Shown: piece by piece, positions 31,885-44,132 of the stretch
How positions within the stretch are numbered: position 1 is the first letter of the stretch
Layout: the number at the start of each line of letters is the position of its first letter
Assembly: GCF_013363975.1 (NCBI RefSeq)
Contig: NZ_JABWGN010000003.1
Location: 1-64,000, forward strand
Length of the DNA: 64,000 bases
Direction of reading: 5' to 3'
From: Nonomuraea montanisoli
Lineage (GTDB): Bacteria > Actinomycetota > Actinomycetes > Streptosporangiales > Streptosporangiaceae
Position numbers and translations under genes: made by a program
Notes under the pieces: model-generated
The model's database searches: none
What the model saw: only the letters and a program-made list of their open reading frames with translations
Told to the model about the DNA's origin: nothing

Positions 31885-31940
31885 CCCCCGCCCCGGCGGG
31901 CCGTGATCTACGGTGGCGTCATTCCGCGCAACGCGATAGC

Positions 31941-31957
31941 ATTCCATGATTCGGAAA
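31941..31957. promoter_or_regulatory. Candidate IclR-type operator, site 1
   Basis: ATTCCATGATTCGGAAA matches the cluster palindrome (TTCC, seven bases, GGAA) and lies 33 bases before the GTG of the IclR gene. A degenerate copy, ATTCCGCGCAACGCGAT, precedes it at 31921. Autoregulation is inferred. Confidence 0.55.
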
Positions 31958-31989
31958 ACTCCGGCCACCGGGCCGTCCGAGGAGGAACC

Positions 31990-32745
31990 GTGAGCGGTAC
32001 GCAGTCGCCGGTGACCAGCGTCGATCGCGCTCTGCTGATCCTGCAGGAGATCGGCAGGCACAGCAGAGGCATGACCATCGACGAGTTGTCGACCCGGCTG
32101 GGGCTGCCCAAGAGCTCGCTGCACCGCCTGCTGGGCGCGCTCAAGCACCGCGGGTTCGCCGCGCAGCCCGATCCCGGCGGGCCGTACTTCCTCGGCACGG
32201 AGATGCTCGCGACCGCGTTCCGCTTCTACGAGACCATGGACGTCCGCGCCGTGATCCACCGGCTGCTGCTGCGCCTGAGCGAGGAGTTCGCCGAGACGGT
32301 GCACATGGCCACGCTCGACGGCGCCGAGGTCGTCTACCTCGACAAGGTCGAGACGATGCGGGCGATCACGATGACGTCGGTGGTGGGCGGGCGCAACGCC
32401 GCGCACGCCACCGGCGTCGGCAAGGCGTTGCTGGCCTGGACCTACCCCACCGACGAGGCGATCAAGGCGTGGGCCGAGCGCCACGCGCCGCTCGCCGCGC
32501 CCACCCGGTCCACCATCACCAACCCGGCGAAGCTGGCCGCCCACATGGCGCTGATCCGCGAGCGCGGCTACGCGCTCGACCTGGAGGAGAACGAGCCCAG
32601 CGTGCGCTGCGTGGCCGCCCCGGTGTTCATGGGCAAGCCCACGCCCGTGGCCGCGGTGAGCGTGACGGCGCTGAAGGACCGCATGCCGCCGGCCCGCATG
32701 GAGGAGATCGGCACGGCCCTGACCAAGGCCATCGCCGAGTTCTGA
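31990..32745 (+). CDS. IclR-family transcriptional regulator
   Basis: A 251-residue regulator. The N-terminal winged helix (TSVDRALLILQEIGRHSRGMTIDELSTRLGLPKSSLHRLLGALKHRGF) is followed by the IclR effector domain (VHMATLDGAEVVYLDKVE, HATGVGKALLAW, RGYALDLEENEPSVRCVAAPVF). GAGGAGGAACC precedes the GTG at 31990. Effector domains of this family bind small acids or sugar-derived ligands. It is the only regulator in the catabolic cluster, and a repeated 17-bp palindrome in six neighbouring intergenic regions is its likely binding site. Confidence 0.93.
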   Translation: MSGTQSPVTSVDRALLILQEIGRHSRGMTIDELSTRLGLPKSSLHRLLGALKHRGFAAQPDPGGPYFLGTEMLATAFRFYETMDVRAVIHRLLLRLSEEFAETVHMATLDGAEVVYLDKVETMRAITMTSVVGGRNAAHATGVGKALLAWTYPTDEAIKAWAERHAPLAAPTRSTITNPAKLAAHMALIRERGYALDLEENEPSVRCVAAPVFMGKPTPVAAVSVTALKDRMPPARMEEIGTALTKAIAEF

Positions 32746-32746
32746 C

Positions 32747-32862
32747 GGGTTCCGACCTCGGCCCGCGCGCGGCCGCCGCCGGGTTCCGGCCCCGGCCCGC
32801 GCGCACCCGCCGCCAGGTTCCGGCCCCGGCCCGCGCACGGCCGCCGCCGGGTTCCGATCCCC
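32747..32862. repeat. 34-bp tandem repeat, 3.4 copies
   Basis: Exact-period units lie at 32747-32780, 32781-32814 and 32815-32848, with a fourth partial copy to about 32862. Each begins GGTTCCG and ends CCGCCGCC. The array starts one base after the IclR stop codon. It contains no convincing ORF. It could be a spacer, a terminator region or a repeat prone to copy-number change. Confidence 0.85.
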
Positions 32863-32925
32863 CTGCCTGCGGCTGAGCTGCCGCGCCCTCCCGTCCATAC
32901 CCGTCTCCGCTCTGCATGGAAGATC

Positions 32926-32942
32926 GTTCTGTATCACGGAAT
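32926..32942. promoter_or_regulatory. Candidate IclR-type operator, site 2
   Basis: GTTCTGTATCACGGAAT fits the shared palindrome with one changed half-site base. It lies 60 bases upstream of the SMP-30 start codon at 33002, in a promoter-proximal position. Confidence 0.6.
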
Positions 32943-33001
32943 GAGGTCCGGATGACTGCCCTGAAGTGTCCCCGCCACGCCGCCCGCTACCGGAGGGTCC
33001 G

Positions 33002-33877
33002 ATGACCAGGGTCTCCGAGCCCGAGATCGTCGCGGTGCCGCCGGCGCGGCTCGGCGAGGGCCCGCGCTGGGACGAGCGCACCGGCACGCTGCTGTGGGTG
33101 GACATCCCGCGGGGCCTGGTGCGCCGCCTGGACCCGTCCGACGGCTCGCACGCGGTGATCGGCGTGGGGCAGCCCGTCGGGGTGGCGGTCCCGCGGGCCG
33201 CCGGCGGCCTGGCGCTGGCCGTGCGCGACGGCTTCGCGCTGCTGGACGAGCCTGCCTGGGACGGAGCGGCGGCGGACGGCCTGAAGGTGGTGGCGCCGGT
33301 GACCGCCGCCGAGCGGCCCGGCAACCGCATGAACGACGGGGCCTGCGACCGGGTGGGCCGCTTCTTCGCCGGCACCAAGGCCGAGGACGACACCCCCGGC
33401 GCCGGAGCGCTGTACCGGCTCGGCCCCGACCGCCGCGCGGAGCGGGTGCTCGACGGGGTCGGCATCTCCAACGGCATCGCCTGGAGCCCGGACGAGCGGC
33501 TGTGCTACTACGTGGACACCCTCACCCGCCGGGTGGACGTCTTCGACTACGACCCCGCCGTCGGGCGGCTCGCGGGGCGGCGCACGTTCGCCGAGATCAC
33601 CCGCGGCATGCCCGACGGCATCACCGTGGACGCGCGGGGTCACGTGTGGGTCGCGCTGTGGGACGGCGGCGCGGTGCTGCGCCTGCGCCCGGACGGGCGG
33701 CTGGACCTGACGGTCGAGATCCCCGTGCGCAACGTCACGAGCTGCGCCTTCGGCGGCCCCGGCCTCACCGACCTGTACGTGACGACCGCCTGGGACGGCA
33801 CGGCGGGCGGCGAGCTGCTGCGCTGCCGCACCTCCGTCGAGGGCGGCCCGGCCAACCCCTACCGCGACGCCGCCTGA
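33002..33877 (+). CDS. SMP-30/gluconolactonase-family lactonase
   Basis: A 291-residue six-bladed beta-propeller hydrolase of the regucalcin family, which opens aldonolactones. Metal ligands are expected at Glu in RLGEGPRWDE, Asn in GISNGIAWSPDE and Asp in GITVDARGHVWVALW; substrate contacts lie near GNRMNDGACD. CGGAGGG precedes the ATG at 33002; the open frame continues upstream without a site. In the proposed pathway it hydrolyses the lactone formed by the SDR or the zinc dehydrogenase. It converges on the zinc dehydrogenase gene across a strong terminator hairpin. Confidence 0.9.
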   Translation: MTRVSEPEIVAVPPARLGEGPRWDERTGTLLWVDIPRGLVRRLDPSDGSHAVIGVGQPVGVAVPRAAGGLALAVRDGFALLDEPAWDGAAADGLKVVAPVTAAERPGNRMNDGACDRVGRFFAGTKAEDDTPGAGALYRLGPDRRAERVLDGVGISNGIAWSPDERLCYYVDTLTRRVDVFDYDPAVGRLAGRRTFAEITRGMPDGITVDARGHVWVALWDGGAVLRLRPDGRLDLTVEIPVRNVTSCAFGGPGLTDLYVTTAWDGTAGGELLRCRTSVEGGPANPYRDAA

Positions 33878-33881
33878 CCTC

Positions 33882-33911
33882 CGCCCGGCGCCCTTCCCCC
33901 GGCGCCGGGCG
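33882..33911. terminator. Bidirectional terminator hairpin
   Basis: CGCCCGGCGCC (33882-33892) and GGCGCCGGGCG (33901-33911) form a perfect 11-bp stem with an 8-base loop between the convergent SMP-30 and zinc dehydrogenase genes. Confidence 0.75.
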
Positions 33912-33966
33912 GGCACACGAGCGCGCCCGCCACGCGGACGACACGCGTGGAGGAGGGCTGCCGCGG

Positions 33967-34902
33967 TCAGGGGGCGAGTAACGCCTTGACCGGGGTGGCG
34001 CGGCCGTTCATGAGAGCGGTGAACACCTCCGCCCCCTCCTCCAGCGGAAAGGTGTCCACCCAGCTCAGGTCCCACCGCCCGACGAGGTCCACGGCGGCGG
34101 CGAAGTCGGCGTCGCGGTAGGCGAAGGACCCGAGCACCCGCTTCTCGCCCCGGACCAGGGCGGCCGCGTCGAACGCGGCGTCGCTGTCGGCCAGGCCGAG
34201 CCAGACCGCCGCTCCGCCGGGCCGCAGGAGGGCCAGCGACTGCTCGTGGGTGACGGCGGCCCCCACCGCGTCGAAGATCACGTCGTACTCGCCCGACAGC
34301 CGGGAGACTGCCGCGTCGGCGCCGAGCCGGGAGGCGGCGGCCAGGCGCTCCTCGGAGCGGTCGGCCACCTCGACCCGGGCGGCGCCGCCCGACCTGGCGA
34401 CCAGCAGGCAGGCCAGGCCGATGGCGCCGGCCCCGATCACGCCCACCCGGGCGCCCGCCGGGGCGCCGGCCAGCTCCCAGGCGTGCACGGCGTTGGCCGC
34501 GGGCTCCACGACTCCGGCGGCCGTCCAGCCGAGCGAGTCGGGCACCGGGACGAGGGCCCCGGCGGGCACGGCGACCCGCTCGGCGAACGCGCCGGGCGTG
34601 TGGACGCCCACGATGCGCCGCTCCCGGCACACGTTGCGCAGGCCGGCGGCGCACAGGTCGCAGCGCCCGCACGACAGGATCGGGTTGGCGACCACCCGGC
34701 GCCCGTCGTCGGTGCTGCCGGCGAACTCGTGGCCCATGACCAGCGGCGGCACGCGGAAGCCCGGGGTGCGCACGCCGTGCAGCTCGCTGCCGCAGATGCC
34801 GGAGGCGGCCACGTGGACGAGCACCTCGCCGGGGCCGGGCTCCGGCTCGGGCACGTCGCGCAGCTCGACGACGCCCGGCGCGGTGAACACCACCGCCCTC
34901 AT
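33967..34902 (-). CDS. Zinc-dependent medium-chain dehydrogenase
   Basis: A 311-residue alcohol/polyol dehydrogenase of the MDR superfamily. Catalytic zinc ligands lie in ASGICGSELHG and MGHEFAG; the structural zinc site is CGRCDLCAAGLRNVC. The NAD-binding Rossmann motif reads VGVIGAGAIGLACLL. It is slightly shorter than typical 340-350-residue members. The ATG at 34902 overlaps the stop of the FAH gene (ATGA). It probably oxidises a sugar or a keto-deoxy acid, using NAD(P)+; relatives include L-idonate, threonine and L-galactonate dehydrogenases. Confidence 0.9.
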   Translation of the reverse strand: MRAVVFTAPGVVELRDVPEPEPGPGEVLVHVAASGICGSELHGVRTPGFRVPPLVMGHEFAGSTDDGRRVVANPILSCGRCDLCAAGLRNVCRERRIVGVHTPGAFAERVAVPAGALVPVPDSLGWTAAGVVEPAANAVHAWELAGAPAGARVGVIGAGAIGLACLLVARSGGAARVEVADRSEERLAAASRLGADAAVSRLSGEYDVIFDAVGAAVTHEQSLALLRPGGAAVWLGLADSDAAFDAAALVRGEKRVLGSFAYRDADFAAAVDLVGRWDLSWVDTFPLEEGAEVFTALMNGRATPVKALLAP

Positions 34903-35738
34903 CGGGTGCCGTCCACGACGGGGTTGCGCAGCTCGCCGATGCCCTCCACGCTGACCTCGACCACGTCGCCGGGGCTCAGGGAGCGCGGCGGGTCCATGAA
35001 CGCGCCGCAGCCCCATGGGGTGCCGGTGAGCACGACGTCCCCGGGTTCGAGGGTGAAGGAGGCCGAGCAGAACGACAGCAGCTCGGCGACGCCGAAGAGC
35101 ATCTCCGCGGTGCTGGAGTCCTGCACGGTCTCGCCGTTGACCACGGTGCGCAGGCGCAGCGCCTGCGGGTCGCCCAGCTCGTCGGGGGTCACGACGACGG
35201 GCCCGAGGGGGCAGAAGGTGTCGAGGCTCTTGCCCCGCGTCCACTGGCCGTCGGAGAACTGCAGGTCGCGGGCCGAGACGTCGTTGGCCACGGTGTAGCC
35301 GGCGACTCCGGCCAGCGCCTCGGCGGGACCGGCGTGCCGCAGGGGCGTGCCGACGACGACGGCCAGCTCCACCTCCCAGTCGACGCTGCCGGTCAGCCCG
35401 GAGTCGATGACGACGGCCTCGCCGGGGCCGATCACGCTGGAGGGGAACTTGGCGAACATCAGCGGGCGCGCGGGCTTGTCCATCCCGGTCTCGCGGATGT
35501 GGTCGAGGTAGTTGAGGCCGATGGCGACGATCTTGCCCGGCCGCAGCGGCGCCACCGGCACCGCGCCGGGCAGCGGCCCGACGGCGCCGGCGGCCGCGCG
35601 CCGCGTCTCCTCGGGGCCCTGCGCGAGCAGCGCCTCCAGGGTGACGCCCGCCGGGATGTCCAGGGCATGCCAGAGCCCGTCCCTCTCCACGGCGGGGAGC
35701 CTGGCTCCGTCCCCGACGCGGACCGTTCCTAGCCTCAT
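34899..35738 (-). CDS. Fumarylacetoacetate hydrolase-family protein
   Basis: A 279-residue FAH-fold hydrolase. The N-terminal small domain (residues 1-65) precedes the conserved core: KIVAIGLNYLDHIRETGM, metal-binding DWEVELAVVVG, then NDVSARDLQFSDGQWTRGKSLDTFCPLGP and LTGTPWGCG. Members that act in non-phosphorylating sugar-acid pathways hydrolyse 2,4-diketo-3-deoxy acids to pyruvate and a hydroxy acid, or act as ketopentonate/hexonate hydrolases (family knowledge). Pairing with a coupled dehydrogenase supports that role. A candidate IclR site lies 22 bases upstream of the start. Confidence 0.9.
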   Translation of the reverse strand: MRLGTVRVGDGARLPAVERDGLWHALDIPAGVTLEALLAQGPEETRRAAAGAVGPLPGAVPVAPLRPGKIVAIGLNYLDHIRETGMDKPARPLMFAKFPSSVIGPGEAVVIDSGLTGSVDWEVELAVVVGTPLRHAGPAEALAGVAGYTVANDVSARDLQFSDGQWTRGKSLDTFCPLGPVVVTPDELGDPQALRLRTVVNGETVQDSSTAEMLFGVAELLSFCSASFTLEPGDVVLTGTPWGCGAFMDPPRSLSPGDVVEVSVEGIGELRNPVVDGTR

Positions 35739-35759
35739 ATCTGCCTACTTCCTCATGTT

Positions 35760-35776
35760 ATTCCGTATGATGGAAC
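35760..35776. promoter_or_regulatory. Candidate IclR-type operator, site 3
   Basis: ATTCCGTATGATGGAAC is a close match to the shared palindrome. It begins 22 bases upstream of the FAH-family start (minus strand). A further half-site, ATTCTGAATCG, follows at 35780. From here to 35971 the sequence is GC-rich with no gene or further structure seen. Confidence 0.65.
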
Positions 35777-35971
35777 GCTATTCTGAATCGCTGTCAGGAC
35801 ATCATCCGCGCTCGCGACCTGTCAAGGGGAACCCCGTCCTCTCAGGCGGGAACGCCACCCTGGAGGGGGCGCCCGGCGCACCCTCGCCCGCCCCGCGAAG
35901 GACGCCAAGCCTGGCCCCGCAGGGCCCCGGACGACCCGCCCGGAGCCACCGAAAGTGGCCTCTGCCACAAT

Positions 35972-35988
35972 GTTCCGCCTAACAGAAC
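35972..35988. promoter_or_regulatory. Candidate IclR-type operator, site 4
   Basis: GTTCCGCCTAACAGAAC fits the TTCC-N7-(G/A)GAA pattern and lies 67 bases before the ATG of the PLP enzyme at 36055. It is the plus-strand counterpart of site 3 in the same 316-base divergent region. Confidence 0.55.
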
Positions 35989-36054
35989 GCTGGACCATGA
36001 AGCGGAACCAGTGCTAGCTTCGTGCCGTATCCGCCGTGCGGCCGAGAGGACACC

Positions 36055-37152
36055 ATGTATCCCGAGCTCGACACCCCGGCACTCCTCATCGACCTGGGCG
36101 CGGTCCGCGCCAACGTGGCCGAGATGGCGAAGGTGGCCGCCACGCACGGCGTGGCGCTGCGCCCCCACATCAAGACCCACAAGATGCCGGAGCTGGCCCT
36201 CATGCAGATCGAGGCCGGGGCGCGCGGCATCACGTGCGCCAAGCTCGGCGAGGCCGAGATCATGGCCGACGCCGGGATCGACGACATCCTGCTCGCCTTC
36301 CCGGTCTGGGGAGAGCCCAAGCTGCGGCGCCTGGAGGCCCTGCGCGAGCGCGCCACCGTGCGCGTCAGCCTCGACTCCCCCGAGATCGCCGCCGGCCTGG
36401 GCCGGCTCGGCCTGCGCACCGGCTCGCCCGTCGAGGTGCTGGTGGAGGTCGACACCGGCCAGCACCGGCTGGGCCGCCCGCCCGGACGCCCCACCGCCGA
36501 CCTGGTCGCCGAGATCGCGGCGATCCCCGGCGTCGAGGTCGTCGGGCTGCTCACCCTGGCCGGCCACGCCTACCACGCGCGCACGCCCGCCGAGTTGGCC
36601 GAGGTCTCCCGCCGCGAGGGCACCGACCTGGTCGCCACCGCCGAGCTGTGCGCCCGCGACGGCATCGGGCTGCGCGAGATCAGCGTCGGCAGCACCCCCA
36701 CCGCCCGGCACGTCGCCGGGGTCGCCGGGGTGACCGAGATCCGGCCCGGCACCTACATCTTCAACGACACCGCCATGATGCGCCTGGGCGTCGCCACCGA
36801 GGACAGCGCGGCCTCGCGCGTGCTGGCCACCGTCATCGCCCGCCCCTCGCCCGACCGCGTCGTGCTGGACGCCGGCACCAAGTGCCTCACCTCCGACAAC
36901 GCGGGCTCGCCCGGCTGGATCCGGGCCGCCGGCATCCCGTGGCTGCGCATGGACTTCCTCAACGAGGAGCACGCCGTCGCCCGGCTCGACCCGGAGCACG
37001 CCCGCGAGGGCGAGCTGCCGGTCGGCACCCGGGTACAGCTCATCCCGGGGCACGCCTGCACCGTCACGAACCTGTTCGACGTGGCGTGCGGTGTCGAGGA
37101 CGGCCGGGTCGTCACCGAACTGCGCGTCGCCGCCCGCGGCGCCGTGCGCTGA
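36055..37152 (+). CDS. D-threonine aldolase/D-serine dehydratase-like PLP enzyme
   Basis: A 365-residue fold-type III PLP protein. The alanine racemase-like N-terminal barrel starts YPELDTPALLIDLGAVRANVAEMA, with the PLP lysine in RPHIKTHKMPELA. VEVDTGQHRLGRPPG and ISVGSTPTA line the phosphate site. The C-terminal DSD1-type domain ends with IPGHACTVTNLFDVACGVEDG, whose His and Cys are the usual metal ligands. Relatives split beta-hydroxy-D-amino acids or dehydrate D-serine types. GAGAGG precedes the ATG at 36055. Its role in the cluster is uncertain: it may handle an amino-sugar acid or act on a hydroxy-amino acid substrate. Confidence 0.88.
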   Translation: MYPELDTPALLIDLGAVRANVAEMAKVAATHGVALRPHIKTHKMPELALMQIEAGARGITCAKLGEAEIMADAGIDDILLAFPVWGEPKLRRLEALRERATVRVSLDSPEIAAGLGRLGLRTGSPVEVLVEVDTGQHRLGRPPGRPTADLVAEIAAIPGVEVVGLLTLAGHAYHARTPAELAEVSRREGTDLVATAELCARDGIGLREISVGSTPTARHVAGVAGVTEIRPGTYIFNDTAMMRLGVATEDSAASRVLATVIARPSPDRVVLDAGTKCLTSDNAGSPGWIRAAGIPWLRMDFLNEEHAVARLDPEHAREGELPVGTRVQLIPGHACTVTNLFDVACGVEDGRVVTELRVAARGAVR

Positions 37153-37195
37153 GCGCCGAGCAGGCGAAAGGCACAGAGCAGGAGAAGGGATCGTC

Positions 37196-37960
37196 ATGCG
37201 TGGACTTACGGGCAAGAGGGTGCTGGTCAGCGGGGGCAGCAGCGGCATCGGCGCCGCCACCGCCCGGCGCTTCCTCGAGGAGGGCTCCCGCGTCGTGATC
37301 GGCGGGCTGGACCCCGACGAGGTGGAGCGCGCCGTGGCGGAGCTGGCGCCGCTGGGCGAGGTGAGCGGCCTGGCCGGAGACGTCAGCTCCGAGAGCGACG
37401 CGACCGGCCTGGTCGACGGCGCCGCCACCGCGCTCGGCGGGCTGGACGTGCTGGTCAACAACGCCGGCACCGCCTGGCGCGAGCCGTTCCTGGAGATCAC
37501 GCCGGAGCACTGGGACCGGATCATGGCGGTCAACCTGCGCGGCATGTTCCTCGTCGCCCAGGCGGCCGCGCGGCTGCTGGTGGCGCAGGGCGGCGGCGGG
37601 GTGATCCTCAACATGTCCTCCACGAACGGGATCGGCGGGGAGGGCGACTACGCCCACTACAACGCCTCCAAGGCCGGCGTGCTGCTGCTGACCAGGACGA
37701 TGGCGGTCGAGCTGGGAGGGCACGGCATCCGGGTCAACGCGCTGTGCCCCGGCTACATCCGCACCCCGCTCAACTCCGCCATCGCGGCGGGGCTGGAGGG
37801 CGGCTTCGTCTCGGCGTACGAGCGCGACCACATCCCGCTCGGCCGGGCGGGCCTGGCCGAGGAGGTCGCCGCCGGCTACGCGTTCCTCGCCTCCGACGAC
37901 GCGGCGTTCGTGCACGGGACCGAGCTCGTCATCGACGGCGGCCAGCTCGCCGTCATGTGA
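37196..37960 (+). CDS. SDR-family oxidoreductase
   Basis: A 254-residue classical short-chain dehydrogenase. The cofactor motif is SGGSSGIGAAT, the NNAG motif is NNAGTAW, and the catalytic residues are Ser in NMSSTNG and Tyr/Lys in YNASKAG. Acidic residues after the second strand (GGLDPDE) favour NAD+. GGAGAAGG lies before the ATG. It follows the PLP enzyme by 43 bases and is probably in the same transcript. In the proposed pathway it oxidises a sugar to its lactone, or a keto-deoxy acid to the diketo form. Confidence 0.9.
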   Translation: MRGLTGKRVLVSGGSSGIGAATARRFLEEGSRVVIGGLDPDEVERAVAELAPLGEVSGLAGDVSSESDATGLVDGAATALGGLDVLVNNAGTAWREPFLEITPEHWDRIMAVNLRGMFLVAQAAARLLVAQGGGGVILNMSSTNGIGGEGDYAHYNASKAGVLLLTRTMAVELGGHGIRVNALCPGYIRTPLNSAIAAGLEGGFVSAYERDHIPLGRAGLAEEVAAGYAFLASDDAAFVHGTELVIDGGQLAVM

Positions 37961-37961
37961 G

Positions 37962-37992
37962 CCCGTGCGGGCGGTCCGGCCGCCCGCACGGG
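37962..37992. terminator. Bidirectional terminator hairpin
   Basis: CCCGTGCGGGCGG (37962-37974) and CCGCCCGCACGGG (37980-37992) form a perfect 13-bp stem with a 5-base loop in the 35 bases between the convergent SDR and permease genes. Confidence 0.8.
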
Positions 37993-37995
37993 ACC

Positions 37996-38814
37996 TCATC
38001 CCTTGACCGCGCCGGTCAGCGCCTGGATGAAGCGGCGCTGGCCGAACAGGAAGACGCCGAGCACCGGCAGCGTGGTGAGCACCGTCCCGGCCATGACCGC
38101 GGGCCAGTCGGCGCGGTGCTGGCCCTGGAACGTGGTCAGCCCCACCTGCACGGTGTACTTCGCCTCCGAGTTGATGACGACCAGCGGCCAGAACAGGTCG
38201 TTCCAGGCCGTGATGAAGGTGATGACGGCCAGCGCGGCCAGGGCCGGCTTGGCCACCGGCAGCACCACCCGGAAGAACACGGCGAAACGCGAGCAGCCGT
38301 CGATGCGGCCGGCCTCCTCCAGCTCCTTGGGGAACGACTGGAAGAACGACGTCATCAGGTAGATGCCCACCGCCGAGCTGAGCTGGGGCACGATCAGCGC
38401 GCCCAGCGTGTCGGTGAGCCCGACCTTGTTGAAGATGAGGAACGTCGGGATGACGGTGAGCTGGAACGGGATCAGCGCCGTGGCGATGACCAGGACGAGC
38501 ACGAGCCGCGAGCCGACGAACCTGATGCGGGCGAAGGCGTAGCCGGCCATGCCGCACAGCACCACCTGGGCCACCACGATGGCCCCGGAGACGAGGACGC
38601 TGTTGAGGAACCAGCGCGGGAAGTTCGACCCCTCCAGCACCCTCTGGTAGCCGCCCAGGTCGACGGCGTCGGGCCAGATCGGCGGCGGGAACCGGTTGAG
38701 CTCCGCCTGGGTCATCAGCGAGCTGAGCACCATCCACACGAACGGCAGCACGGTGACGAGCGACATGGGCGCCAGCACCAGGTGCCAGCCGCTGGGAAGC
38801 CTGCGCCGTCTCAT
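37996..38814 (-). CDS. Carbohydrate ABC importer permease (MalG type)
   Basis: A 272-residue inner-membrane permease with six hydrophobic segments. The coupling-helix EAA loop reads KELEEAGRIDGCSRFAVFFRVVLPVAKPALA. It belongs to the MalG/UgpE-like CUT1 group. The ATG overlaps the stop of the first permease (ATGA). No ATPase gene is present in the cluster; CUT1 systems of actinobacteria commonly share an MsiK-type ATPase encoded elsewhere. Confidence 0.94.
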   Translation of the reverse strand: MRRRRLPSGWHLVLAPMSLVTVLPFVWMVLSSLMTQAELNRFPPPIWPDAVDLGGYQRVLEGSNFPRWFLNSVLVSGAIVVAQVVLCGMAGYAFARIRFVGSRLVLVLVIATALIPFQLTVIPTFLIFNKVGLTDTLGALIVPQLSSAVGIYLMTSFFQSFPKELEEAGRIDGCSRFAVFFRVVLPVAKPALAALAVITFITAWNDLFWPLVVINSEAKYTVQVGLTTFQGQHRADWPAVMAGTVLTTLPVLGVFLFGQRRFIQALTGAVKG

Positions 38815-39740
38815 CGCATCGCTCCCCTGCGCCGGGCGAGCAGCAGGCCGGCCACGATCAGCACGAGCGTGCCGGCGAACAGCACGTACGCCACGGCCGC
38901 GCCGTACCCGGCGGTGAAGTAGGTGAAGGCGAGCTGCCAGACGTAGTAGACGATGGTCACCGTCGCGTTGGCCGGGCCGCCCTTCGTGGTCGTCATGACC
39001 AGGTCGAAGAACTGCAGCACGTCGATCATCCCCCAGACCGCCAGGAAGACCGTCATGTGCCGCACCGACGGCACGATGACGTGCCGGAAGGTCGCCCACC
39101 GTCCGGCGCCGTCGATGGCGGCGGCCTCCACGACCTCCTTGCTGATCTCCTGGAGCGCCGCCAGGTAGATCACCACCGAGAACCCGAACCGCGTCCAGAA
39201 GAAGATCACGGTCAGCACGAGCATGGCCTGCGACGGGCTGCTCAACAGCCCCTGGGCGGGCAGGCCCAGCTTGACCAGCATGCCGTTGAACAGGCCGAAG
39301 TCGCGGTCGAAGATGTAGCCCATGAGCAGGCCGGCCGCGGTGGCCGAGGCGACGTACGGCACGAGGAAGCAGGTGCGGTAGAAGCCGATGCCGCGCACCT
39401 TGCGGTTGAGCAGCACCGCCACGGCCAGCCCCGCGACCAGCGACGCCGGCAGGTACAGGAACAGCAGCAGCGCGGTGTTGCGCAGCGCCTGGTGGAAGAC
39501 CGGGTCGGCGACCAGCGCCCGGTAGTTCTCCAGCCCCACGTCGCGGCCCGGCGACATGAGGTCGGAGTCCGTGAACGACAGGGCGAGCGCCCACGCCATC
39601 GGGACCAGCGAGAAGCCGAGGATGATCAGCGTGGCGGGCCCGGCGAAGGTCCACCCGGTGATGTTGTCGGCCAGTTTGCGCCGGTCGGGTGGCGCGGTGT
39701 GGCGGGAGGCGCGGCTCAGCGCCGTCGCGGTGCTCGTCAC
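38811..39740 (-). CDS. Carbohydrate ABC importer permease (MalF type)
   Basis: A 309-residue permease with six membrane segments after a cytoplasmic N-terminal tail. The EAA loop reads KEVVEAAAIDGAGRWATFRHVIVPSV. CUT1-type MalF/UgpA-like. The GTG at 39740 overlaps the stop of the substrate-binding protein gene (GTGA). It pairs with the permease at 37996-38814 to form the membrane channel. Confidence 0.94.
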   Translation of the reverse strand: MTSTATALSRASRHTAPPDRRKLADNITGWTFAGPATLIILGFSLVPMAWALALSFTDSDLMSPGRDVGLENYRALVADPVFHQALRNTALLLFLYLPASLVAGLAVAVLLNRKVRGIGFYRTCFLVPYVASATAAGLLMGYIFDRDFGLFNGMLVKLGLPAQGLLSSPSQAMLVLTVIFFWTRFGFSVVIYLAALQEISKEVVEAAAIDGAGRWATFRHVIVPSVRHMTVFLAVWGMIDVLQFFDLVMTTTKGGPANATVTIVYYVWQLAFTYFTAGYGAAVAYVLFAGTLVLIVAGLLLARRRGAMR

Positions 39741-41032
39741 GAGCCCGGCACGGCGAGCGCCGCGTCCGTCTTGGCGGCCGCCTCGTCCAGCGCCGACTTG
39801 GCGTCGGCCCGGCCGAGCAGGGTCCGGGCGATGGCGTCGGCGACGAACGAGGAGATCCGCGGGTACGACGTGGTCGGCGGGCGCACGCGCTTGGCGTTGG
39901 CCAGGTTGCCGGAGATGACGTCGATGCCGGGGTACTTCTTCAGGTAGTCGTCGTAGCCGGGCTGCTCCGAGATCGACGCCCGGATCGGCAGGGAGCCGGT
40001 GTCCTTCATCCACTGCAGCTGCTGCTCGGGCGCGGTGAGCCAGGTGAGGAACGTCGCCGACGCCTTGACCCGCCGCTCGTCGTGCTCGAAGACCGTCCAG
40101 GTGTCGGGGCCGGAGATGGTCTCGTGGTTGCCCGCGGTGCCCGGGAGCTGGACCACGCCGTAGTCCACCCCGGCCGCCTGCAGGTCGGGCAGCACCCACG
40201 GGCCGGACAGGAAGAACGCGAGCCGTCCCGACTCGAACAGCTTCTGGCCCTTCTCGGCCGGGCTGGAGTCGAGGTAGACGGACTTGTCGTCCACCGCCAT
40301 CGAGCGCAGCAGGTCGAGCGAGCGCCGCCCGGCCTCGGAGTTGAAGGCCGCCTTCTTGTTGTCGGCCGTGAGGATCTCGCCGCCGGACTGCCACACCAGC
40401 GGCCACAGGCCCCACACCGCCTCCTCGCCGCCGCTGATCGGCCACGTGGTGCCGAAGACCCCGGCCCGGGCGTCGGTGGCCCGCTTGGACATGGCGCGGA
40501 AGTCGTCCCACGTCCAGTCCTTCGACGGCGGCTTGAGGCCCGCCTTGGCCAGCAGCTTCTTGTTGTAGAGGACGACCATGTTGTCGACCACCGCGGGGAA
40601 GCCGATGATCTTGCCGCCGACGGTGACCGTCGCGCGCTCGCTGGCCCAGAAGTCCTCCCACTTCACCGCCGGGTCCTTGATGTACGGGGTGAGGTCGGCG
40701 GTCTTGGGGTTGCGCGCGATGTTGGGCGCCCACGAGCCGTACAGGTAGGCGATGTCGGGGTGGGCGTCCGAGGTGAGCGCCGCGGTGATCTTGGGCAGCA
40801 TGCCGTCGGCCGTGACGCCGCCGGAGGTGATCTGCACCTTGACGTCCGTGTGCGTCTGGTTGAACGTGGCGACGAGCCGCTCGATGGACTTGGCGGAGGT
40901 GTCCTCCTGGCCGTGCCACATGAGGATCTCCACGGGCCCGCCGGCCCTCTGCTCCGTCCCGTCGCCGCCGCACGCGGTCAGCAGGGCGGGCAGGAGCAGG
41001 GCGGCGGCCGCGGCGGTCACTGCGCGTCTCAT
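39737..41032 (-). CDS. Sugar-binding lipoprotein of an ABC importer
   Basis: A 431-residue family 1 extracellular solute-binding protein. The signal peptide ends in a lipobox LLTAC with the lipidated Cys21. Mature blocks include VEILMWHGQEDTSAKSIERLVATFNQTH, DIAYLYGSWAPNIA, PAVVDNMVVLYNKKLLAKAGL and FFLSGPWVLPDL. It should be anchored on the outer face of the membrane and deliver an oligosaccharide or glycoside to the two permeases. The start overlaps the GH4 stop (ATGA), so uptake and cleavage are made together. Confidence 0.94.
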   Translation of the reverse strand: MRRAVTAAAAALLLPALLTACGGDGTEQRAGGPVEILMWHGQEDTSAKSIERLVATFNQTHTDVKVQITSGGVTADGMLPKITAALTSDAHPDIAYLYGSWAPNIARNPKTADLTPYIKDPAVKWEDFWASERATVTVGGKIIGFPAVVDNMVVLYNKKLLAKAGLKPPSKDWTWDDFRAMSKRATDARAGVFGTTWPISGGEEAVWGLWPLVWQSGGEILTADNKKAAFNSEAGRRSLDLLRSMAVDDKSVYLDSSPAEKGQKLFESGRLAFFLSGPWVLPDLQAAGVDYGVVQLPGTAGNHETISGPDTWTVFEHDERRVKASATFLTWLTAPEQQLQWMKDTGSLPIRASISEQPGYDDYLKKYPGIDVISGNLANAKRVRPPTTSYPRISSFVADAIARTLLGRADAKSALDEAAAKTDAALAVPGS

Positions 41033-42318
41033 CGGATCCCCTCGGGAAGCAGGTCGCCGTGAGCGGCGATCATCTCGTCCACCATGTCGTGGATCTGCTG
41101 GAGCGTGAGCGTGGCGGAGGTGTTGGGGTCGAGCATGGCCGCGTGGTAGACGTGGTCGCGGCGGCCTTCGAGGGCGGCGCGCACGGTCAGCTCTCCGACG
41201 TTGAGGAACGTCTGGTTGAGCGCGGCGAGCTGGGGCGGCAGGTCGCCGATCCGGGTGGGGCGCACGCCGGCCCGGTCCACGACACAGGGCACCTCGACGC
41301 AGGCGGCGTCGGGCAGGTTGCCGATCAGGCCGCCGTTGCGGACGTTGCCGTGGACGATCCTGCGGGTGCCCGTCTCGATCGAGTGGATGACCTCGGAGGC
41401 CAGCTCCATGGCGGGCTCGATCTCCACGCCCTCGCCCGCGGCCAGCCGCCGGCGCGTCTCCTCGAAGGTGTCGACGTTCTCCTGCGACCACCGCAGGTAG
41501 ATCTCGACGGGGATGCGCAGGCGCTCCACCTCGGCGTCGTGGTGCAGGAACCAGGGCAGGTACTCCGAGCCGTGCTCGCTGGACTCGGTGGGGAAGTGCC
41601 CCAGCCGGCGGTACATCTCCACCCGCACGGTGCGGCGCAGCTCGGGGTCGTTCGCGATGACCTCGTCCAGCACCGGGTAGAGGTTCTCGCCGCCGCGCTC
41701 GAAGGTCAGCACGAACGCCTGGTGGTTGACCCCCGCGGTGATGAACGAGACCTCCTCCTCCGGCACGCCGACGAGGGAGGCCAGGCGGGCCTGGGTGTCG
41801 CGCACCGAGTGGCACAGGCCCACGACCCGGTCGAACGAGCTGCCCTCGTAGACGGCCCGCGGGATCATCGACATCGGGTTGGTGTAGCTGAGCAGCAGCG
41901 CGTGCGGGGCGAGCTCGGCCAGGTCCTCGCCGAGGCCCACCATGACGGGGATGGTGCGCAGGGCGCGGAAGATGCCGCCGATGCCGAGGGTGTCGCCGAT
42001 CGTCTGGCGCAGGCCGTGGCGGCGGGGGATCTCGAAGTCGCGGACGGTGGCGGCGTGGCCGCCGACGGCGATCTCGTTGATCACGTAGTCGGCGCCCTCC
42101 ACGGCGGCGCGCCGGTCGAGATGGGCCTCCACCTTGGCGCCGAGGCCGAGCGCGCCCACCATCCAGATGGCCATGGCCTCGGCCGTGGCCAGCCGGTCGG
42201 CGTCGATGTCATGCAGGACGAGGGTGGACTCCCCCAGTTCTGGAAATGTCAGGATGTCCGAGAGGACATTCTTGGTGAATTCGACGCTGCCGGCGCCGAT
42301 GAACACGATGCGTGCCAT
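41029..42318 (-). CDS. GH4-family NAD-dependent glycosidase
   Basis: A 429-residue GH4 enzyme. It binds NAD+ through IVFIGAGSVEFTKNV and a divalent metal through Cys in GLCHSV and His in GVNHQAF. GH4 enzymes work by oxidation at C3, elimination and re-reduction. The CHSV tetrad is associated with alpha-galactosidase/alpha-galacturonidase members (MelA/LplD group) rather than phospho-glycosidases, so the substrate is probably unphosphorylated. The conserved block GDTLGIGGIFRALRTIP follows. It is the first gene of the uptake operon and faces the oxidase genes across a promoter region with three candidate IclR sites. Confidence 0.93.
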   Translation of the reverse strand: MARIVFIGAGSVEFTKNVLSDILTFPELGESTLVLHDIDADRLATAEAMAIWMVGALGLGAKVEAHLDRRAAVEGADYVINEIAVGGHAATVRDFEIPRRHGLRQTIGDTLGIGGIFRALRTIPVMVGLGEDLAELAPHALLLSYTNPMSMIPRAVYEGSSFDRVVGLCHSVRDTQARLASLVGVPEEEVSFITAGVNHQAFVLTFERGGENLYPVLDEVIANDPELRRTVRVEMYRRLGHFPTESSEHGSEYLPWFLHHDAEVERLRIPVEIYLRWSQENVDTFEETRRRLAAGEGVEIEPAMELASEVIHSIETGTRRIVHGNVRNGGLIGNLPDAACVEVPCVVDRAGVRPTRIGDLPPQLAALNQTFLNVGELTVRAALEGRRDHVYHAAMLDPNTSATLTLQQIHDMVDEMIAAHGDLLPEGIR

Positions 42319-42402
42319 GGGGCTGTTCCCTTGCGGAGCACGGCGGGCCCGAGGGCCCGCTGAAGTGGCGAGTATAGCCTTCTGTCTGTTTTGTTGATGA
42401 TC

Positions 42403-42419
42403 ATTCCGTTCAACGGAAC
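42403..42419. promoter_or_regulatory. Candidate IclR-type operator, site 5
   Basis: ATTCCGTTCAACGGAAC, 85 bases upstream of the GH4 start. Both TTCCGTT and AACGGAA arms are perfectly symmetric, which makes it one of the best copies. Confidence 0.65.
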
Positions 42420-42560
42420 GCCGATCAGGAGAGGAGGTGCGCCACCCCGGGCTCTTCGCTCTTCCCTCGCGGTCCCGTCCGCGGCGATCTCGCTGGTGAC
42501 GCGCGGCCCGGGCGCGGTGGCCGGGCGTCCCGGCGGAGTCGTCCTTCCCACATGGCGCCT

Positions 42561-42577
42561 ATTCCGTATCGCAGAAT
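42561..42577. promoter_or_regulatory. Candidate IclR-type operator, site 6
   Basis: ATTCCGTATCGCAGAAT, in the middle of the divergent region, with a weaker neighbour (GTTCTGAATTGGGAAT) four bases further on. Confidence 0.55.
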
Positions 42578-42667
42578 GCAGTTCTGAATTGGGAATAGGA
42601 CACCACCCCGGCATGCGACTGTCAACCCTCCGGGTCGCTGACCGCACGAAACCGCATGATGATCGGC

Positions 42668-42684
42668 ATTCCATACAATGGAAC
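42668..42684. promoter_or_regulatory. Candidate IclR-type operator, site 7
   Basis: ATTCCATACAATGGAAC, 39 bases before the ATG of the FAD oxidase gene. It would overlap or adjoin the -35 region of that gene's promoter. Confidence 0.6.
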
Positions 42685-42722
42685 ACTAGACCGCTATACA
42701 GAATGCTGTTAGTTTGCGGTAC

Positions 42723-44132
42723 ATGCCCGTGAAGACCACCGCGACCGGGGAGCCGCTGGACGCCGCCACGCTGCGCGAGCTGCGCGCGATCGTCGGCGCC
42801 GAGCACGTACGGCACGCCGACGGCGACGTGACCCCCTACGCCCGGGACGCCACTCCCCTGTTCCGCGCCCGGCCCGGCGCCGTCGTCCACCCGGCCTCCA
42901 CCGAGGAGGTCGCGGCCGTGCTCCGCCTGGCCGGCGCGCGGGGCATCCCCGTCGTCCCCCGCGGCGCCGGCTCCAACCTGTGCTCGGCCACCGTCCCCCT
43001 GGAGGGCGGCATCGTGCTGGTCCTGACCCGGCTCGACCGCATCCTGGAGATCAGCGCGGAGGAACTGCTCGCCGTGTCGCAGCCCGGCGTCACCTCCGCC
43101 GCGCTCGCCGACGCCGCCGCGGCCCACGGCCTGCTCTACGCGCCCGACCCCGGCAGCAGGAGCGTGGCCACGATCGGCGGCACCGTCGCCACCTGCGCCG
43201 GCGGGCTGCGCGGCCTCAAGTACGGCGTCACCCGCAACTACGTGCTGGGCCTGGAGGCGGTGCTGGGCACCGGCGAGGTCATCCGCACCGGCGGCCGGCT
43301 CTGGAAGGACGTCGCCGGCTACGACCTCACCCGGCTGCTCACCGGCTCCGAGGGCACCCTCGGCGTGATCACCGAGGTCACGCTGGCGCTGCTGCCCGCC
43401 CCCGGGACCGCCGGCAACGGCCTGGCCTACTTCCCCACCCTGGCCGACGCCGGACGCGCCGTGACCCGCGTCATCGCCGCCGGCATCGTCCCGGCCACCC
43501 TGGAGTTCCTCGACGCCCGCTGCGTCGACGCGGTCGAGCAGCACGCCCGGCTCGGGCTCCGGCGCGACGCCGGAGCGCTGCTCATCTTCGGCGACGACGG
43601 CGAGCCCGCGGCCGTCGCCCAGCGGCTCGACCGCATGGCGGAGCTGTGCCGGGACACCGGCGCGATCGAGGTGTCCGTGGCCGGCCACGCCGCCGAGTCG
43701 GAGGCCCTGCTGGCCGCGCGCCGCTGCACGCTGCCCGCGCTGTCCCGGCTCGGCTCGATCACCATCCTGGAGGACGTCGGCGTGCCCCGTCCCCGCATCG
43801 CCGAGATGGTCGGCCACATCGACGACATCGCCGGGCGGCACGAGGTCACGATCGCCACGTTCGGGCACGCCGGCGACGGCAACCTGCACCCGACGTGCGT
43901 CATCGACAAGGGCGACGACGAGGCGGCCGAGCGCGCGCACCTCGCCTTCGGCGAGATCTTCCGGACCGCGATGCGGCTCGGCGGCACCATCACCGGGGAG
44001 CACGGCGTCGGCGCCGCCAAGCTCCCCTACCTCACCGAGCGGCTCGGCGCCGCCCAGATCGACCTGCAACGCCGGATCAAGGCCGCCTTCGACCCGGCGG
44101 GCATCCTCAATCCCGGAAAGGCCGGCTCATGA
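42723..44132 (+). CDS. GlcD-type FAD-linked oxidase
   Basis: A 469-residue VAO-fold flavoprotein of the D-lactate/glycolate dehydrogenase group. The FAD-binding domain contains VVPRGAGSNLCSATVP and DPGSRSVATIGGTVATCAGGLRGLKYG. The C-terminal cap contains IATFGHAGDGNLHPTCV and ITGEHGVGAAKLPYL. It oxidises a 2-hydroxy acid and passes electrons to the iron-sulfur partner. No ribosome binding site precedes the ATG at 42723; leaderless translation is possible, and a TTG at 42714 is the alternative start. Its stop overlaps the next start. No GlcE-type subunit is present. Confidence 0.92.
   Translation: MPVKTTATGEPLDAATLRELRAIVGAEHVRHADGDVTPYARDATPLFRARPGAVVHPASTEEVAAVLRLAGARGIPVVPRGAGSNLCSATVPLEGGIVLVLTRLDRILEISAEELLAVSQPGVTSAALADAAAAHGLLYAPDPGSRSVATIGGTVATCAGGLRGLKYGVTRNYVLGLEAVLGTGEVIRTGGRLWKDVAGYDLTRLLTGSEGTLGVITEVTLALLPAPGTAGNGLAYFPTLADAGRAVTRVIAAGIVPATLEFLDARCVDAVEQHARLGLRRDAGALLIFGDDGEPAAVAQRLDRMAELCRDTGAIEVSVAGHAAESEALLAARRCTLPALSRLGSITILEDVGVPRPRIAEMVGHIDDIAGRHEVTIATFGHAGDGNLHPTCVIDKGDDEAAERAHLAFGEIFRTAMRLGGTITGEHGVGAAKLPYLTERLGAAQIDLQRRIKAAFDPAGILNPGKAGS

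What the first reader, a model, noticed from the sequence alone, without database searches (positions are those of the whole stretch)
31921..42705. A repeated 17-bp palindrome defines a putative IclR regulon over the whole catabolic cluster
Seven good copies of a TTCC-N7-GGAA palindrome occur at 31941, 32926, 35760, 35972, 42403, 42561 and 42668, plus weaker half-matches. The best copies are ATTCCGTATGATGGAAC and ATTCCGTTCAACGGAAC. All lie in intergenic regions upstream of the IclR gene itself, the SMP-30 gene, the FAH/dehydrogenase operon, the PLP/SDR operon, and both sides of the GH4/ABC versus GlcD/GlcF divergent region. None was noticed in coding sequence of the cluster. IclR-family proteins bind short palindromes of this kind, and the only regulator in the cluster is of that family. 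The operator-protein link is inferred.
Basis: partly seen in the sequence, partly recalled or inferred. Interest (0 to 1): 0.78.

Follow-up and report, generated by a model that had tools for sequence, protein, structure and literature searches.

The report
Split IclR regulon with tandem operators
Short DNA palindromes in front of an actinobacterium's sugar-breakdown genes mostly come in pairs exactly 20 bases apart, and in 54 related genomes a paired form was found only where one particular regulator gene is present, so they are likely the switches by which that regulator would control genes predicted to digest a galactosamine-containing polymer.

Summary
In 13 loci from 12 Nonomuraea genomes it occurs 65 times, never in an assigned cluster gene. 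(1) Most sites are tandem: a second palindrome lies exactly 20 bp away at 57 of 65 sites; other spacings tested give at most 12. (2) The regulon is split: three more sites, about 480 kb away, precede a GH114 (polygalactosaminidase-family) gene and a paralogous dehydrogenase-GH4-amidohydrolase operon, whose relatives lie inside the main cluster in other species. (3) There are two promoter layouts, one repressor-like and one activator-like. A 35-bp composite operator is found in exactly the 18 of 54 genus genomes that carry this IclR (80% identity or more), six of them held out, and in none of 36 others. Known kind: IclR 'group 1' motif with 18-22 bp tandem sites (PMC8222616); a new member. The galactosaminide substrate is an inference; no binding or expression was measured.

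The parts
31990..32745 (+). iclR-family regulator gene (GTG start, AGGAGG ribosome-binding-like sequence by eye)
   Evidence: Pfam HTH_IclR 52.3 bits and IclR_C 137.4 bits; below the cut-off of every NCBIfam model matched
31922..31956 (+). predicted operator of iclR: partner 31922-31936 plus main palindrome 31942-31956
   Evidence: main exact; partner 8/10; composite pattern hit
32907..32941 (+). predicted operator of the SMP-30 gene: main 32927-32941, weak partner 32907-32921 (5/10)
35761..35795 (-). predicted operator of the FAH-dehydrogenase operon: main 35761-35775, partner 35781-35795; just downstream of promoter-like TTGACA 35820-35825 / TGTCCT 35796-35801 (minus strand)
35973..36007 (+). 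predicted operator of the PLP-SDR operon: main 35973-35987, partner 35993-36007; -10-like TAGCTT at 36015-36020
42384..42418 (-). predicted proximal operator of the GH4-ABC operon: main 42404-42418, weak partner 42384-42398 (5/10); -10-like TATACT 42371-42376 (minus strand)
42562..42596 (-). predicted distal operator facing the GH4-ABC operon: main 42562-42576, partner 42582-42596; promoter-like TTGACA 42620-42625 / TGTCCT 42597-42602 (minus strand)
42669..42703 (+). predicted operator of glcD-glcF: main 42669-42683, partner 42689-42703; -10-like TAGTTT 42710-42715
33002..33877 (+). SMP-30/gluconolactonase-type lactonase
   Evidence: Pfam SGL 272.7 bits
33967..34902 (-). zinc alcohol dehydrogenase family
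   Evidence: Pfam ADH_zinc_N, ADH_N
34899..35738 (-). FAH-family hydrolase; solved relatives include L-2,4-diketo-3-deoxyrhamnonate hydrolase 8gsr
   Evidence: Pfam FAA_hydrolase 254.3 bits
36055..37152 (+). PLP enzyme (D-threonine aldolase / D-threo-3-hydroxyaspartate dehydratase / D-serine dehydratase kin)
   Evidence: Pfam Ala_racemase_N + D-ser_dehydrat; 4v15, 3wqc, 3anu
37196..37960 (+). SDR-family dehydrogenase, matches glucose 1-dehydrogenase subfamily above its cut-off
   Evidence: NF005559 240.7 vs cut-off 215
37996..41032 (-). ABC sugar importer: two permeases (37996-38814, 38811-39740) and binding protein (39737-41032)
   Evidence: Pfam
41029..42318 (-). GH4 glycosidase
   Evidence: Pfam GH4/GH4C; alpha-galactosidase subfamily NF011657 564.2 vs cut-off 486
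42723..45193 (+). GlcD-like (42723-44132) and GlcF-like (44129-45193) D-2-hydroxyacid dehydrogenase pair
   Evidence: both below equivalog cut-offs

Best explanation
The seven palindromes are the strong elements of mostly tandem sites spaced exactly 20 bp, and these are likely the operators through which the IclR-family protein encoded at 31990-32745 would control this catabolic cluster and a second locus about 480 kb away. Predicted mechanism: two dimers bind side by side on one DNA face. At promoters with a TTGACA -35 box (in this genome FAH-dehydrogenase, GH4 distal, and the remote GH114 and dehydrogenase-GH4-amidohydrolase promoters) the tandem site lies from about -6 to +29, where bound protein would block transcription. 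At PLP-SDR, GH4 proximal and glcDF promoters, which have a TAnnnT -10 box at a fixed place but no TTGACA, the site covers about -54 to -20, where the protein would help recruit polymerase (activation) or, almost as likely, occlude the -35 region. The protein is predicted to repress its own gene. The inducer is probably an intermediate of the pathway. The pathway is predicted to use alpha-linked galactosaminides: GH114 endo-hydrolase outside the cell, ABC import, GH4 cleavage, SDR oxidation to a lactone, lactonase, PLP dehydratase removing the amino group, dehydrogenase, then FAH cleavage to pyruvate plus a C3 acid, which GlcDF would oxidise. Shown by computation: site positions, spacing, conservation, co-occurrence. 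Inferred: binding, tetramer, repression/activation, inducer, substrate. The confidence given is for the regulon with tandem operators; activation about 0.5, substrate about 0.42.
For: Seven of seven refined-motif hits of the 64 kb window lie in 1,248 intergenic bases of the cluster. 65 sites in 13 loci, 0 in 137 kb assigned to cluster genes. iclR promoter 12 of 12, PLP 9 of 9, GH4 7 of 7, GH114 6 of 6, remote-type dehydrogenase 4 of 4 units. Partner at exactly 20 bp: 57 of 65 (>=6/10) and 44 of 65 (>=7/10), against at most 12 and 3 at the other offsets tested. Composite operator in 18 of 54 genus genomes = exactly the 18 with the regulator at 80% identity or more (6 of 6 held out), 0 of 36 others, 0 reversed-pattern control hits in 54. 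Other genera (9 of the 23 loci were scanned): iclR promoter site in 9 of 9, 26 sites, none in a recognised cluster gene, 22 with partner >=6/10. Recognition-helix residues P[KR]S[ST]HR in 12 of 12 orthologues aligned and in 0 of 8 own paralogues, whose loci lack the motif. TTGACA 46-50 bp upstream of the main site at 19 of 59 sites; these are 19 of the 25 TTGACA in 96 kb of unassigned DNA. TAnnnT 6-9 bp after the partner at 21 of 26 candidate rows, the other 5 being sites of the repressor layout. GH114 catalytic Asp/Glu conserved.
Against: No binding or expression data. Misses: SMP-30 orthologues of G022 and G002 (70-72%) have no strict site; in G004, G064 and G076 the regulator is present but GH114 has no site. 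The partner is weak (5/10) at the SMP-30 and proximal GH4 sites of the window. One paralogue differs from the orthologue recognition residues at one position only (PRSSHA). Related genomes are not independent samples, and 12 of the 18 positive genomes helped to define the composite. The activator role rests on promoter geometry alone, and some of these promoters have TAGACC (4 of 6 to TTGACA) at -35. A TGTCCT-like -10 was read in the window promoters but varies elsewhere and was not found at GH114 promoters. Substrate: Streptomyces sp. SID3343 and Embleya clusters show no GH114 or PLP gene in the DNA held; the GH4 best fits an alpha-galactosidase subfamily.
Confidence: 0.85

Rival explanations
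1. The sites are operators of this IclR, but it acts only as a repressor: at the PLP, GH4-proximal and glcD promoters it also represses, by covering the -35 region.
For: The sites share one consensus at all promoters; some activator-layout promoters carry TAGACC at -35, 4 of 6 to consensus. Repressors are common in the family (PMC8222616 passage).
Against: No activator-layout site has TTGACA at the expected place while a TAnnnT sits at a fixed distance in 21 of 26 candidate rows, as in activator-dependent promoters; IclR-family activators and dual regulators are known (PMC8222616 passage).
Confidence: 0.4
2. The palindromes are bound by another IclR paralogue or a global regulator and not by the adjacent IclR protein.
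For: IclR-family motifs resemble one another across the family (PMC8222616, abstract); the genome has 8 further IclR-like matches, one with recognition residues differing at one position.
Against: The composite operator occurs only in the 18 of 54 genomes with this orthologue, although other genomes hold IclR proteins of up to 46% identity (63% in G071, which has its own diverged cluster and sites); none of the 8 paralogue loci (3.4-3.7 kb each) has the motif.
Confidence: 0.04
3. The regulon serves a neutral or uronic alpha-galactoside, not an amino sugar; GH114 joins it for the galactose part of a heteropolymer or has another specificity.
For: GH4 scores above the cut-off of an alpha-galactosidase subfamily; clusters in Embleya and Streptomyces sp. 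lack GH114 and PLP genes in the DNA held; galactosaminogalactan contains galactose too (PMC12054363 passage).
Against: A PLP enzyme of the D-3-hydroxy-amino-acid dehydratase/aldolase kin stands where a sugar-acid dehydratase would be expected, which fits a 2-amino sugar acid; GH114 has the catalytic pair of Ega3 and sits in the cluster in Nonomuraea, Streptosporangium, Spongiactinospora and Actinomadura.
Confidence: 0.4
4. The palindromes are chance or repeat-family sequence without regulatory meaning.
For: Single palindromes do occur elsewhere in the genome (28 of 38).
Against: 0.24 expected against 5 seen in the window; sharp 20-bp spacing peak; conservation in rearranged clusters at 59-99% regulator identity.
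Confidence: 0.01

Closest known systems
IclR-family group 1 operators, WTT-11-AAW / GTT-11-AAC subgroups (Suvorova and Gelfand 2021, PMC8222616)
   Same: Half-site TTYCRY / RYGRAA with 3 central bases, tandem sites 18-22 bp apart predicted for 94 orthologous groups; site centres mostly -20 to -80 from the start codon (abstract, sections 13 and 14).
   Different: This regulon is not mentioned in the parts read: a search of the main text for galact, glycosid and COG1486 gave 0 hits, and sections 13-16, 19 and 22 do not describe it; supplements were not read. Here the spacing is fixed at 20 bp and two promoter layouts recur.
PcaU/PobR (beta-ketoadipate pathway activators)
   Same: IclR family; palindrome plus an external half-site repeat, needed for PcaU binding (PMC8222616 passage).
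   Different: Regulator is far below the pcaR_pcaU NCBIfam cut-off (129.5 vs 284.75); targets are sugar genes.
BhcR (regulator of the beta-hydroxyaspartate cycle)
   Same: Best NCBIfam hit of the regulator (169 bits), in a cluster with a BhcC-like PLP gene.
   Different: Both below equivalog cut-offs (169 vs 350; 156.1 vs 690); the cluster has glycosidases and a sugar importer.
Ega3 and other GH114 endo-alpha-1,4-polygalactosaminidases (PMC12054363, passages)
   Same: Remote regulon gene is PF03537 with catalytic Asp/Glu aligned to Ega3 Asp189/Glu247.
   Different: Here the gene belongs to a predicted uptake and breakdown regulon; its activity is untested.
Predicted glucosamine route of chitin-eating Natrarchaeobius (PMC12343721, passages)
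   Same: Amino sugar oxidised by a glucose 1-dehydrogenase to the amino sugar acid, then a PLP ammonia-lyase; clusters with an IclR-family regulator; also a prediction.
   Different: Archaea, glucosamine, a phosphorylated intermediate and the Entner-Doudoroff end; here no kinase was seen among the cluster genes and an FAH hydrolase ends the route.
Non-phosphorylative L-rhamnose/L-fucose pathways (dehydrogenase, lactonase, dehydratase, dehydrogenase, LRA6-type FAH hydrolase; recalled)
   Same: Same order of enzyme types; FAH protein related to 2,4-diketo-3-deoxy-L-rhamnonate hydrolase.
   Different: The sugar-acid dehydratase is replaced by a PLP enzyme; FAH below the equivalog cut-off (209.7 vs 500).

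Membership tests
IclR-family regulator | HTH_IclR and IclR_C domains in one protein of about 250 aa | tested here: met
   52.3 and 137.4 bits, above gathering scores
IclR group 1 operator (PMC8222616) | palindrome GKTYCRYW3-4RYGRAMC, or subgroup WTTYCRYW3RYGRAAW | tested here: met
   symmetrised matrix of 65 sites fits, with a looser centre
IclR tandem-site group (PMC8222616) | second site 18-22 bp from the first | tested here: met
   exactly 20 bp at 57 of 65 sites
IclR regulon | binding of the protein to the sites | not testable with these tools
   only co-occurrence and recognition-helix conservation
PcaR/PcaU/PobR subfamily | NCBIfam TIGR02431 cut-off | tested here: not met
   129.5 vs 284.75 bits
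BhcR and beta-hydroxyaspartate cycle | NF045644 and NF045642 equivalog cut-offs | tested here: not met
   169 vs 350 and 156.1 vs 690 bits
GH114 endo-alpha-1,4-polygalactosaminidase | PF03537 domain with catalytic Asp and Glu | tested here: met
   213.1 bits; aligned Asp/Glu (position counted by eye)
GH114 endo-alpha-1,4-polygalactosaminidase | activity on polygalactosamine | not testable with these tools
   no assay
2,4-diketo-3-deoxy-L-rhamnonate hydrolase | NF053535 equivalog cut-off | tested here: not met
   209.7 vs 500 bits; related, not the same enzyme

The most novel reading that the evidence does not exclude
A single IclR-family regulator, through paired operators in two promoter layouts, runs a complete non-phosphorylative pathway by which actinomycetes eat galactosamine-rich fungal and bacterial matrix polymers: GH114 cuts the polymer outside, GH4 releases the amino sugar, and a PLP dehydratase stands in for the usual sugar-acid dehydratase. 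My searches of the held open library found no description of it.
Probability: 0.42. Interest if true: 0.72.

Novelty: new member of a known kind. Interest (0 to 1): 0.5.

Why it matters
The operator code ties ten sites in two distant loci into one regulon and gives a substrate lead for genes otherwise known only by family. If the substrate inference holds, it names a regulator, an importer and a full route for breakdown of galactosaminogalactan-type polymers, whose endo-galactosaminidases are called underexplored in PMC12054363 (abstract), and it gives clear tests: one gel shift and one growth experiment.

Tried and rejected
Rfam scan of 30-47 kb: no match at gathering thresholds. Consensus promoter/terminator scan of 42300-42750: nothing, as the layouts found later do not fit a full TTGACA plus TATAAT consensus. 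Exact TTCC-N7-GGAA as the genome-wide test was too loose: 59 in the genome against 25 for the reversed pattern, so refined and tandem patterns were used. The glutamine-synthetase-like gene 30523-31884 was considered as a regulon member and rejected: no site in 2 of 2 genomes examined that have it there. Literature searches of the held open-access library: galactosaminate (0 papers); galactosamine + FAH + lactonase + pathway; galactosamine + IclR + glycoside hydrolase (listing only); galactosaminogalactan + actinobacteria + degrad (listing only); Nonomuraea + IclR + regulon (listing only). None shows this regulon by title or start of abstract; the papers themselves were not read. Searches were listings too; from them PMC8222616, PMC12054363 and PMC12343721 were opened.

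Rows dropped before counts: leave out G026 (near-duplicate of the window genome; 59 of 65 sites kept). One search assigns genes by tblastn hits with at least 40% coverage, so unassigned genes count as non-gene DNA. The list of 26 candidate rows took only sites 30-190 bp from PLP, GlcD, GH4, SBP or SDR with a partner of 5/10 or more. Of the 23 loci the 14 Nonomuraea ones were not rescanned for sites (only gene content). The second GH114 copy of G072 was not examined. Transcription units that have a site, misses included: SMP-30 4 of 8, FAH 7 of 9, GlcD 4 of 6, ADH 2 of 3, permease-first units 0 of 5, glutamine-synthetase-like 0 of 2, alpha/beta hydrolase 0 of 2, GH43 0 of 1, TetR 0 of 1, SDR 1 of 1, SBP 2 of 2. 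Misses at 29-45% identity: two SMP-30, two FAH, two GlcD, the five permease units. True misses: SMP-30 of G022 and G002, and ADH of G032, which lies 110 bp behind FAH on the same strand.
Full report
OBSERVATION. The window holds five exact TTCC-N7-GGAA palindromes against 0.24 expected from shuffles; four are in the cluster (31942, 35761, 42404, 42669), the fifth is at 53897 outside it. Three further sites of the finding have one mismatch (32927, 35973, 42562). Written as TTCYRN5YRGAA, the motif has exactly seven matches in 64 kb, all in the 1,248 intergenic bases of the 14.7 kb cluster.

GENES. The cluster encodes an IclR-family regulator, an SMP-30-type lactonase, a zinc dehydrogenase plus FAH hydrolase, a PLP enzyme plus SDR, an ABC sugar importer plus GH4 glycosidase, and GlcD/GlcF. 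The regulator stays below the cut-offs of all eight NCBIfam models it matches, so it is a member of the family without a known equivalent there.

CONSERVATION. Orthologues of the regulator at 80-99% identity occur in 17 other genomes, so 18 of 54 genomes of the genus carry it; one more (G071) has a 63% relative; no listed hit of the remaining 35 exceeds 46%, and four of the 20 genomes had none at E <= 1e-40. In 13 loci (the window cluster, its remote locus and 11 relatives) the refined motif occurs 65 times: 0 in 137,260 bp assigned to cluster genes, 65 in 32,342 bp of other DNA. It precedes iclR in 12 of 12, PLP in 9 of 9, GH4 in 7 of 7, GH114 in 6 of 6 and the remote-type dehydrogenase in 4 of 4 transcription units; FAH 7 of 9, SMP-30 4 of 8, GlcD 4 of 6, ADH 2 of 3 (all misses are listed under Tried and rejected). 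Gene order differs between species, so the sites travel with the promoters.

TANDEM ARCHITECTURE. Scoring a second palindrome at 18 offsets gives one sharp peak at 20 bp: 57 of 65 sites score at least 6 of 10 and 44 at least 7; offset 21 gives 12 and 2, all others tested at most 5 and 3 (per-side profile for offsets 15-44). In the window the partner scores 8 (iclR), 7 (PLP), 7 (glcD), 6 (FAH), 6 (distal GH4) and only 5 at SMP-30 and proximal GH4.

SPECIFICITY. In the 9.76 Mb genome the refined palindrome occurs 38 times (18 for the reversed pattern). Ten are in the two regulon loci; of the other 28, none has a 20-bp partner of 6/10 or more, against 8 of 10 in the regulon. Two tandem patterns hit 5 and 5 places (controls 0 and 1); 9 of the 10 are in the two loci, the tenth is C55:406194. 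These patterns were fitted to known sites, so their hits there are expected; the near absence elsewhere is the informative part. A 35-bp composite taken from the iclR-type sites was searched in 54 genus genomes: present in 18, exactly the 18 with the regulator, six of which were not used to define it; 0 of 36 others and 0 control hits (regulator status). The genomes are related, so this is not 54 independent trials.

BEYOND THE GENUS. In nine named loci of Streptosporangium, Spongiactinospora, Sphaerisporangium, Planomonospora, Actinomadura, Embleya and Streptomyces (regulator 59-84%), the iclR promoter has the motif in 9 of 9; there are 26 sites in all, none in a recognised cluster gene, 22 with a partner of 6/10 or more. 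In G071 a compact cluster shows the tandem site before its dehydrogenase-GH4-amidohydrolase-lactonase operon and a site before iclR, although the fixed 35-bp composite does not hit that genome. Six recognition-helix positions read P[KR]S[ST]HR in 12 of 12 orthologues aligned and in 0 of 8 own paralogues, whose loci also lack the motif; the nearest paralogue reads PRSSHA. The positions follow the contact table in PMC8222616 (section read), mapped by eye.

SPLIT REGULON. Three more sites lie about 480 kb away on the same contig, before a GH114 gene (PF03537; signal-peptide-like N terminus by eye, so likely secreted) and before a dehydrogenase-GH4-amidohydrolase operon paralogous to window genes. 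No IclR match lies there. In relatives G032, G003, G025, G022 and G031 the GH114 gene is inside the main cluster with its own site. Of 15 regulator-bearing genomes with a close GH114 (72-100% identity), 12 have a site near it (misses G004, G064, G076); of 3 genomes with a close GH114 (68-71%) and no regulator, 0 have it; of 11 loci with a distant GH114 (36-40%), 0 have it; G071 has none at its GH114 gene.

PROMOTER LAYOUTS (sequence shown, function inferred). Repressor-like layout: TTGACA begins 46-50 bp upstream of the main palindrome at 19 of 59 non-redundant sites, and these are 19 of the 25 TTGACA in 96 kb of unassigned DNA. In the two window promoters of this kind TGTCCT abuts the partner as -10, which puts the tandem site at about -6 to +29; the -10 varies in other promoters and was not found at GH114 ones. 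Activator-like layout: among 26 candidate rows near PLP, glcD, GH4/SBP and SDR, 21 have TAnnnT 6-9 bp after the partner and no TTGACA; the other 5 are sites of the repressor layout seen from the other side. Some of the 21 have TAGACC, 4 of 6 to consensus, at -35. The site then covers about -54 to -20. iclR promoters have the main palindrome 23-41 bp before the start codon with the partner upstream in 12 of 12; their core promoter was not identified. IclR-family repressors, activators and dual regulators are known (PMC8222616 passage).

SUBSTRATE (inferred). Ega3 of GH114 is specific for galactosamine stretches and uses Asp189/Glu247 (PMC12054363 passages); the window genome's protein aligns Asp and Glu there, by my count on the printed alignment. 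The PLP enzyme is closest to D-threonine aldolase, D-threo-3-hydroxyaspartate dehydratase and D-serine dehydratase; such chemistry fits a 2-amino-3-hydroxy acid, as an amino sugar acid would be. In Actinomadura hibisca an ORF with an L-PSP/RidA domain lies next to the PLP gene, which would fit a dehydratase that releases an imine (role of RidA recalled). The FAH protein is related to 2,4-diketo-3-deoxyrhamnonate hydrolase. Against: clusters of Embleya and Streptomyces sp. show neither GH114 nor PLP gene in the DNA held, and GH4 fits an alpha-galactosidase subfamily. A predicted amino-sugar-acid route under an IclR regulator has been put forward for haloarchaea (PMC12343721 passages), with different later steps.

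PLACE AMONG KNOWN SYSTEMS. Suvorova and Gelfand (PMC8222616; abstract, passages and sections 13-16, 19, 22 read) describe this operator type and tandem 18-22 bp spacing for 94 orthologous groups, so the mechanism class is known. This regulon is not mentioned in those parts; the supplements were not read. Verdict: the finding is real and correctly interpreted, better supported and larger than stated, and a new member of a known kind; its most interesting part is the predicted galactosaminide pathway.

Noticed in passing
G000 contig C33:523468-527994 (L014:8469-12995): Second part of the regulon: GH114, amidohydrolase, GH4 paralogue and dehydrogenase paralogue with three operator-like sites, about 480 kb from the window cluster.
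   Followed up: yes
window 42710-42725: The predicted -10 box of glcD ends 7 bp before the ATG, so the glcD transcript may be leaderless.
   Followed up: no
window 30523-31884: Glutamine-synthetase-like gene directly upstream of iclR, best fit gamma-glutamylputrescine synthetase but below cut-off (422.7 vs 650); among the loci examined it is there only in the closest relatives, without a site.
   Followed up: partly
window 46838-47866, minus strand: Protein that seems made of repeated similar modules (by eye), no Pfam match.
   Followed up: partly
L142:7730-8970 (Actinomadura hibisca): ORF with L-PSP/RidA domain beside the PLP gene, and a metallo-beta-lactamase-fold ORF next to it, in the orthologous cluster.
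   Followed up: partly
L094 (G071:C23:240000-259900): Compact form of the cluster with a 63% identical regulator, holding GH114, importer, SDR, dehydrogenase, GH4, amidohydrolase and SMP-30 within about 11 kb.
   Followed up: partly
G000 C55:406194-406228: The only tandem-pattern hit outside the two regulon loci; likely chance, its gene context was not looked at.
   Followed up: no
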